This document shows, one piece after another, positions 62,239 through 62,487 of a stretch of 64,000 nucleotides of DNA. How positions within the stretch are numbered: position 1 is the stretch's first letter; the number at the start of each line of letters is the position of its first letter. The stretch lies in contig NZ_AP022608.1 in the NCBI RefSeq assembly GCF_010728925.1, positions 5,518,001 to 5,582,000 on the forward strand, given 5' to 3'. The position numbers were made by a program, and so were the translations under genes. Origin of the DNA: Mycolicibacterium gadium (lineage in GTDB: Bacteria; Actinomycetota; Actinomycetes; Mycobacteriales; Mycobacteriaceae). The notes beneath the pieces were generated by a model. It saw only the letters and a list, made by a program, of their open reading frames with translations. It did not search any database and had not been told where the DNA came from.

Positions 62239-62487
62239 ATGGATCCCACTATCGTCGCCGGAGCACTCATCGGCGGTGGACTTCTGTTGGGAGGCGGCGC
62301 CATCGGGGCCGCCATCGGTGACGGCGTCGTAGGTAGCGCGCTGGTGAACGGAGTTGCCCGGCAGCCCGAGGCCCAGGGCAGGCTGTTTGTCCCGTTCTTC
62401 ATCACCGTCGGCCTGGTTGAGGCCATGTACTTCATCAACCTGGCGTTCATGGCGCTGTTCGTGTTCGCCACCCCGGGTGCCTCCTAA
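62239..62487 (+). CDS. atpE: F1Fo ATP synthase subunit c, with Met63
   Basis: The product has 82 residues forming two helices: Gly-rich LIGGGLLLGGGAIGAAIGDG with Asp28, the loop ARQPEAQGRLF, and FFITVGLVEAMYFINLAFMALFVF with the proton-carrying Glu61. Residue 63 is Met (codon 62425-62427, ATG), where M. tuberculosis and most mycobacteria have Ala. Residues 59-66 with Asp28 line the bedaquiline site. ATG 62239 has AAGGAGG about ten bases upstream, fitting the high c-ring copy number. Confidence 0.97.
   Translation: MDPTIVAGALIGGGLLLGGGAIGAAIGDGVVGSALVNGVARQPEAQGRLFVPFFITVGLVEAMYFINLAFMALFVFATPGAS

What the first reader, a model, noticed from the sequence alone, without database searches (positions are those of the whole stretch)
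62425..62427. AtpE carries Met at position 63, the natural bedaquiline-tolerance residue
The c-subunit gene encodes GLVEAMYF, so residue 63, two after the essential Glu61, is Met and not Ala. Substitution of Ala63 in M. tuberculosis gives diarylquinoline resistance, and Met63 is the variant reported in the naturally poorly susceptible M. xenopi, M. novocastrense and M. shimoidei. The rest of the drug pocket (Asp28, Leu59, Glu61, Tyr64, Ile66) is unchanged. This predicts intrinsic bedaquiline tolerance and narrows the species: M. novocastrense or a close rapid grower is a candidate.
Basis: partly seen in the sequence, partly recalled or inferred. Interest (0 to 1): 0.85.

Follow-up and report, generated by a model that had tools for sequence, protein, structure and literature searches.

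The report
Swapped ATP-synthase operon carrying Met63
The ATP-synthase ring protein of this mycobacterium really carries the methionine linked to natural bedaquiline tolerance, and it most likely arrived when the whole ATP-synthase operon was replaced by a relative's copy, so the residue travels between species instead of naming one.

Summary
In detail: atpE (62239-62487, +) has ATG at codon 63 (62425-62427), single copy in the genome. Met63 as a natural variant is already in print (PMC5817190). Two parts of the reading fail. The residue does not point to a species: 36 of 396 mycobacterial genomes carry it, and 35 of them lie scattered on a core-gene tree (12 changes, at least 9 forced). The tolerance forecast is only moderately backed: one panel lists MICs of 0.125-0.25 for three species reported or annotated to carry Met63.

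The atpI-atpB-atpE block tracks Met63 (1-4 changes per window); flanking and F1 genes do not (8-12). In the window genome each gene from atpI to atpC is 67-86% identical to close relative G145, against 94-97% upstream; the drop starts near 61025 and ends at 68950-69550, beyond the window. G213 shows the same drop. Best reading: in-place replacement of the atp operon, bringing a Met63/Ala25 Fo allele that circulates among mycobacteria.

The parts
62239..62487 (+). atpE, subunit c of F-type ATP synthase, 82 aa, with Leu17, Ala25, Met63
   Evidence: ORF and translation; NF004532 above its cut-off; single copy
62425..62427 (+). codon 63, ATG (Met)
   Evidence: read directly; codon printed
62311..62313 (+). 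codon 25, GCC (Ala); found in all 35 surveyed Met63 genomes in which it could be read
   Evidence: codon printed
62287..62289 (+). codon 17, TTG (Leu); accompanies Met63 but also occurs with Ala63
61417..62172 (+). atpB, subunit a; travels with the Met63 allele
   Evidence: TIGR01131 above its cut-off; the atpI+atpB tree needs 3 changes of the Met/Ala state against 12 on the core tree
62008..62010 (+). AtpB codon 198 (Met), aligned with M. smegmatis aL199, a leading-site contact (for bedaquiline itself called possible)
   Evidence: contact list in PMC9516385 (section 10 read)
62062..62064 (+). AtpB codon 216 (Leu), aligned with M. smegmatis aV217, a leading-site bedaquiline contact
   Evidence: contact list in PMC9516385
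60981..61424 (+). ORF in the atpI position, first gene of the replaced tract; named by position only (no NCBIfam match)
62508..63047 (+). atpF, subunit b
   Evidence: NF004412 above its cut-off
63052..64000 (+). atpH, fused b/delta subunit, runs off the window
   Evidence: NF009961 above its cut-off
61025..64000 (+). window part of the replaced atp operon; the tract goes on to between about 68950 and 69550 in window numbering (G000:C1 = window + 5518000)
   Evidence: identity to G145 in 25-nt steps falls from 92-100% to 32-76% at 61025-61100 (an earlier dip at 60925 is seen in all pairs compared); downstream it is 82-94% from 68950 and 92-96% from 69550 apart from one step at 69800
59543..60742 (+). 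WecA/MraY-type glycosyltransferase gene (rfe position), conserved left flank
   Evidence: TIGR02380 is the best match but below its cut-off; 96% identical to G145 and to G213

Best explanation
atpE encodes the ordinary proton-carrying ring subunit of the ATP synthase, in a Met63/Ala25 form. This form is one allele of an Fo block (atpI-atpB-atpE) that has been exchanged between mycobacterial lineages by homologous recombination. In the ancestor of the window genome and G213 the whole operon (atpI to atpC, about 8 kb) was replaced in place by an operon related to those of G201 and G079. Shown: the residues, the co-occurrence of 25 and 63, the conflicting trees and the edges of the tract. Inferred: recombination as the cause; that Met63 fills the cleft between neighbouring c subunits beside Glu61, where bedaquiline sits, and so should weaken binding while proton transport continues. 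The size of that effect is not settled by the published MICs.
For: 35 of 35 Met63 genomes whose codon 25 could be read have Ala25; 23 of 23 Ala63 genomes have Gly25. Met/Ala changes on trees of 58 genomes: 12 for rpoB+prfA+rfe (at least 9 forced by well-supported branches), 10 for atpA+G+D+C, 7 for atpF+H, 3 for atpI+B; shuffled mean about 18. Windows of 360 nt over 56 of these genomes, codons 25 and 63 masked: 8-12 in prfA and most of rfe, 1-4 over atpI-atpB-atpE, 7 over atpF/H, 8-12 over atpA-atpC. Third positions alone still give 2 changes for atpE (75 columns) and for 5' atpB, which argues for shared descent and not protein convergence. The 21-genome Met63 clade of the atpI+B tree is rejected as one clade for core genes (AU p 1e-7) and F1 genes (p 1e-6); G000+G213+G145 as a clade is rejected for atpI+B (p 8e-73) and F1 (p 4e-174). 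G145's operon groups with its core relatives G039 and G081, so G000/G213 is the recipient side. M. smegmatis cA67 (= Ala63; offset of 4 seen) lies 3.7-4.0 A from bedaquiline in simulations (PMC9516385). A63M is used as a resistant natural variant, modelled within 2.5 A of the drug, in PMC6541270 (passages).
Against: MICs of 0.125-0.25 for M. xenopi, M. shimoidei and M. thermoresistibile (PMC9769519) speak against Met63 being sufficient for high tolerance. M. duvalii and M. neoaurum had MICs of 2 without an atpE change (PMC5817190). Outside the genomes surveyed the 25/63 link is looser: 4 of 52 Met63 proteins among the 120 listed homologues have Gly25. On the core tree the state is still more clustered than shuffled labels (12 against about 18; 0-1 of 500 shuffles as low), so part of the pattern is vertical. 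The sister relation G000+G213 within the trio is weak (94/45), though the trio is 100/100. The right edge of the tract is gradual. One origin of the allele is neither shown nor rejected.
Confidence: 0.82

Rival explanations
1. Met63 arose repeatedly by mutation in separate lineages, and Ala25 followed each time as a structural partner; the atp genes were inherited vertically.
For: Residues 25 and 63 are linked in three separate atpI+B clades and in a Chloroflexi MAG (L079).
Against: 21 Met63 atpI+B sequences form one clade (100/99) though scattered by core genes, third positions agree, and G000 differs from G145 over the whole operon and not at two codons.
Confidence: 0.08
2. Hidden paralogy: ancestors held two atp operons and different descendants kept different ones.
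For: Some genomes hold a second atpE-like copy (G212, G013 and G037).
Against: The variant operon lies at the same place between the same flanks, and the extent of the conflict differs between lineages: whole operon in G000/G213, atpI to atpH but not F1 in G085/G303/G310 and G178/G184/G374/G369, atpI-atpB-atpE only between G104/G137 or G065/G107/G122 and their core neighbours G349 or G315 (trees). G000 has one atpE.
Confidence: 0.07
3. One reading: a vertically inherited species marker of M. novocastrense or a near relative that predicts intrinsic bedaquiline tolerance.
For: M. novocastrense is cited as Met63 with a significantly higher MIC, and M. flavescens was found Met63 with MIC >2 (PMC5817190).
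Against: Met63 in 36 of 396 genomes, scattered; the nearest relatives by core genes besides G213 are Ala63 (G145, G081, G039 and G169, the last = M. neglectum by identical DNA); MIC data disagree.
Confidence: 0.1

Closest known systems
Natural AtpE Met63 of M. xenopi, M. novocastrense, M. shimoidei and M. flavescens (PMC5817190 and works it cites)
   Different: Here the linked Ala25, the Fo block that carries it and its exchange between lineages are described; in PMC5817190 Met63 is given as a species trait. The original reports (Petrella 2006, Huitric 2007) were not held, so their alignments were not seen.
Acquired atpE changes in M. tuberculosis under bedaquiline (Ala63Pro, Val or Leu; Gly25Ser with Asp28Gly; PMC12263412, PMC10156607)
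   Same: Same positions of the same protein.
   Different: Those are changes selected under treatment or in vitro; here it is a natural allele with Met at 63 and Ala at 25 that came with kilobases of foreign operon.
Allelic replacement of core genes by homologous recombination in bacteria (general knowledge, recalled)
   Same: In-place replacement, conserved flanks, mosaic extent, tree conflict.
   Different: The exchanged unit is the ATP synthase operon or its Fo part, an essential multi-subunit machine.

Membership tests
F-type ATP synthase subunit c (NF004532) | Profile score above the curated cut-off | tested here: met
   149.1 bits against 120
F-type ATP synthase subunit c (NF004532) | Essential carboxylate Glu61 and place between atpB and atpF | tested here: met
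Natural bedaquiline-tolerant Met63 class | Met at residue 63 of AtpE | tested here: met
Natural bedaquiline-tolerant Met63 class | Raised bedaquiline MIC in the strain | not testable with these tools
   no phenotype data for this genome; published MICs for Met63 species conflict
   36 of 396 genomes; 12 changes among 58 genomes on the core tree
Recombinational allelic replacement | Identity drop with conserved flanks at the same locus | tested here: met
   left edge sharp, right edge gradual
Recombinational allelic replacement | Tree of the tract conflicts significantly with the core tree | tested here: met
   AU tests
Recombinational allelic replacement | Donor lineage identified | tested here: inconclusive
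   F1 and FH trees put G000/G213 next to G201 (Ala63), atpI+B next to G231/G068/G207 (Met63)

The most novel reading that the evidence does not exclude
The Met63/Ala25 form is one allele of an old, shared polymorphism of the mycobacterial Fo motor, kept in circulation by recombination because soil organisms make natural inhibitors of the same c-ring site (oligomycin- or venturicidin-like macrolides). Tolerance to bedaquiline, where it exists, would be a by-product of that older contest.
Probability: 0.25. Interest if true: 0.75.

Novelty: new variant of a known kind. Interest (0 to 1): 0.55.

Why it matters
If the Fo block that changes the bedaquiline site moves between mycobacterial species, then residue 63 cannot be read from the species name, intrinsic susceptibility tables need the atpB-atpE sequence, and residue 25 belongs in the reading. 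It also points to natural sister genomes (window genome and G213 with Met63, G145 with Ala63) whose strains, if obtainable, would show the effect of the operon type without altering any gene.

Tried and rejected
AtpB residue 16 and AtpI residue 68 looked diagnostic for Met63 in the 58 genomes but failed in the 80 named loci, where Ala63 loci show the same letters; dropped.

Leu17 as a third member of the linked set: present in 35 of 35 Met63 genomes, but also in Ala63 sequences (2 of 23, several), so not specific.

A search for Ala25 alone by DNA pattern was unselective: 377 of 396 genomes matched, with no link to atpE; not used.

A first homologue count by a regular expression mis-registered the columns; it was replaced by pairwise alignment, and only the latter is cited for residues 25 and 63. 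The coordinates used for prmC and sua5 were out of frame, so those two were left out of the trees; their DNA identities are for the stretches so named. In one search the atpF value for G145 covers under 80% of the gene.

The rpoB search scored 264 of 396 genomes, so the list of nearest relatives is a floor. Of the 36 Met63 genomes one (G355) is cut by a contig end before codon 25 and is not in the trees. G359 has no rpoB in the set and fills 21% of the core columns; G359 and G369 were dropped from the sliding windows (56 of 58 used). Of 30 Ala63-candidate genomes located, 20 operons were fetched; G201, G171 and G382 were added, so the Ala63 sample leans towards relatives of the window genome. 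The AU groups were chosen after seeing the atpI+B and core trees.

PMC13246000 (multi-species MICs, passages only) may hold bedaquiline MICs for many species in its figures; figures are not held, and atpE is not mentioned in its text.

No structure prediction was run: the tool reports no coordinates or inter-subunit distances, and the bedaquiline site is formed between subunits.

Full report
Observation. The window holds atpE at 62239-62487 (+), 82 codons, between atpB and atpF, and codon 63 at 62425-62427 is ATG. The protein matches NCBIfam NF004532 above its cut-off and is the only atpE match in the one-contig genome of 5,964,999 bases. One correction: residue 25 is Ala (62311-62313). Ala63 sequences have Gly there in 69 of 69 loci (mycobacteria and relatives) and in 23 of 23 genomes.

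How common. A pattern for V-E-A-M-Y-F hit 37 of 396 genomes of the genus sample, with one hit of the reversed control pattern. One of the 37 (G082) is not atpE, since no AtpE match was found in its locus, leaving 36 Met63 genomes; the pattern is strict, so this is a floor. AtpE itself was found in 386 of 396. Codon 25 could be read in 35 of the 36 and is Ala in all 35, with Leu17 in all 35; in G355 the contig ends before it. Among the 120 listed of 2,229 homologues, Met63 goes with Ala25 in 48 of 52 and Ala63 with Gly25 in 66 of 66; the other two have Ile63 and Gly63. So the link is strong but not absolute outside the genomes surveyed.

Trees. For 58 genomes (35 Met63; 23 Ala63, mostly chosen as near relatives of the window genome) I counted the fewest changes of the Met/Ala state on trees of different genes. 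rpoB+prfA+rfe needs 12 (at least 9 forced by well-supported branches), atpA+G+D+C 10, atpF+H 7, atpI+atpB 3; shuffled labels average about 18. In sliding windows of 360 nt over 56 of the genomes, with codons 25 and 63 of atpE removed, the count is 8-12 over prfA and most of rfe, falls to 1-4 over atpI, atpB and atpE, is 7 over atpF and atpH and 8-12 over atpA to atpC. Third codon positions alone give 2 changes for atpE (75 columns, too few to resolve many forks) and for the 5' two thirds of atpB, which argues for shared descent and not convergence. The atpI+atpB tree has three Met63 clades: 21 genomes (100/99, with the window genome), 12 genomes (with G094 = M. kyorinense by identical DNA) and G182+G262. 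The 21 are rejected as one clade for core genes (AU p 1e-7) and for F1 genes (p 1e-6). In the 3' atpB+atpE tree all 35 Met63 rows are one side of a branch, but with weak support (60/79), so a single origin of the allele is possible and not shown. For lineages other than G000/G213 the direction of exchange (Met63 into Ala63 or the reverse) was not determined.

The window genome. By core genes G000, G213 and G145 form a clade (100/100); rpoB identity is 97% to G145 and 98% to G213 over the 2.7 kb matched. G213 has Met63, G145 has Ala63. Upstream stretches are 94-97% identical between G000 and G145; then atpI 68, atpB 75, atpE 81, atpF 70 (partial), atpH 67, atpA 81, atpG 79, atpD 86 and atpC 79%, and 90% for the next ORF. 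The drop begins near 61025, just inside the first gene. On the right identity is 82-94% from 68950, the end of atpC, and mostly 92-96% from about 69550. G213 shows the same drop against G145 and shares the operon with G000 (atpB to atpC 88-96%, atpI 76%). G145's own operon groups with G039 and G081, its core relatives, and a clade of G000+G213+G145 is rejected for atpI+B (p 8e-73) and F1 (p 4e-174). So the recipient is the G000/G213 ancestor. Its atpF-atpC lie next to G201 (Ala63) and its atpI+B next to G231/G068/G207 (Met63), so the donor operon was itself mosaic, or more than one event took place.

Mechanism. Bedaquiline binds at c-ring sites and, more tightly, at two a/c interfaces; the residue aligned with Ala63 (cA67 of M. 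smegmatis; offset of 4) lies 3.7-4.0 A from the drug in simulations (PMC9516385, section 10 and passages). A methionine there should crowd the cleft while Glu61 still carries protons; this step is inferred. The subunit a that travels with it also differs at two leading-site contacts: the positions of M. smegmatis aL199 and aV217 are Met and Leu in all 23 Met63 genomes outside the 12-genome clade, against Leu 20 / Met 3 and Ile 21 / Val 2 in the 23 Ala63 genomes (the register was set from the essential Arg, whose M. smegmatis number is recalled). Such letters also occur with Ala63 in other loci. The bedaquiline site partly overlaps the oligomycin site in yeast (PMC7438494, abstract and passages), and venturicidin from actinomycetes targets subunit c (PMC10135114, passages). 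Natural inhibitors are therefore a plausible older reason for the polymorphism; untested.

Phenotype evidence, both ways. For: both M. flavescens strains >2 ug/ml with Met63, and M. xenopi 4 ug/ml cited from Petrella (PMC5817190, whole text). Against: PMC9769519 (section 5) lists 0.125 for M. xenopi ATCC 19250, 0.25 for M. shimoidei ATCC 27962 and 0.125 for M. thermoresistibile ATCC 19527, beside 0.0625 for H37Rv; an AtpE named M. thermoresistibile by its source is Met63/Ala25 (P0011), though strain identity is not shown. The same panel has M. celatum and M. rhodesiae at >2; their AtpE was not examined. In PMC5817190 M. duvalii and M. neoaurum reach 2 ug/ml without an atpE change. I put the chance that the source strain is clearly less susceptible than its Ala63 sisters at about 0.55.

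In print. My ten searches of the held open-access library (some listings were capped) listed no paper whose title or shown abstract start describes exchange of atp genes between mycobacteria or the Ala25/Met63 pairing. Full texts were not checked for this beyond the papers named above. The two original reports of natural resistance are not held, and most subscription papers are outside the library.

Noticed in passing
L080 (M. peregrinum DSM 43271) 4992-5219; second matches in G212, G013, G037: Some mycobacteria hold a second, divergent AtpE-like gene (Thr63 in L080), beside the normal copy.
   Followed up: no
L079 5001-5210 (Chloroflexi MAG); P0068 (named Segniliparus rugosus): Met63 with Ala25 also outside Mycobacterium, so the pairing may be old or structurally favoured.
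   Followed up: partly
window about 61040-61640 against G213: atpI and the start of atpB are only 69-82% identical between G000 and G213 although the rest of the operon is 84-97% in 200-nt steps: possibly a further recombination boundary.
   Followed up: partly
L055: Contig titled Bifidobacterium breve MAG carries a mycobacterial-type AtpE, 86% identical to the window's: probably a mis-binned contig.
   Followed up: no
window 45467-45542 (-): The only tRNA gene ARAGORN finds in the window, tRNA-Arg (ccg).
   Followed up: no
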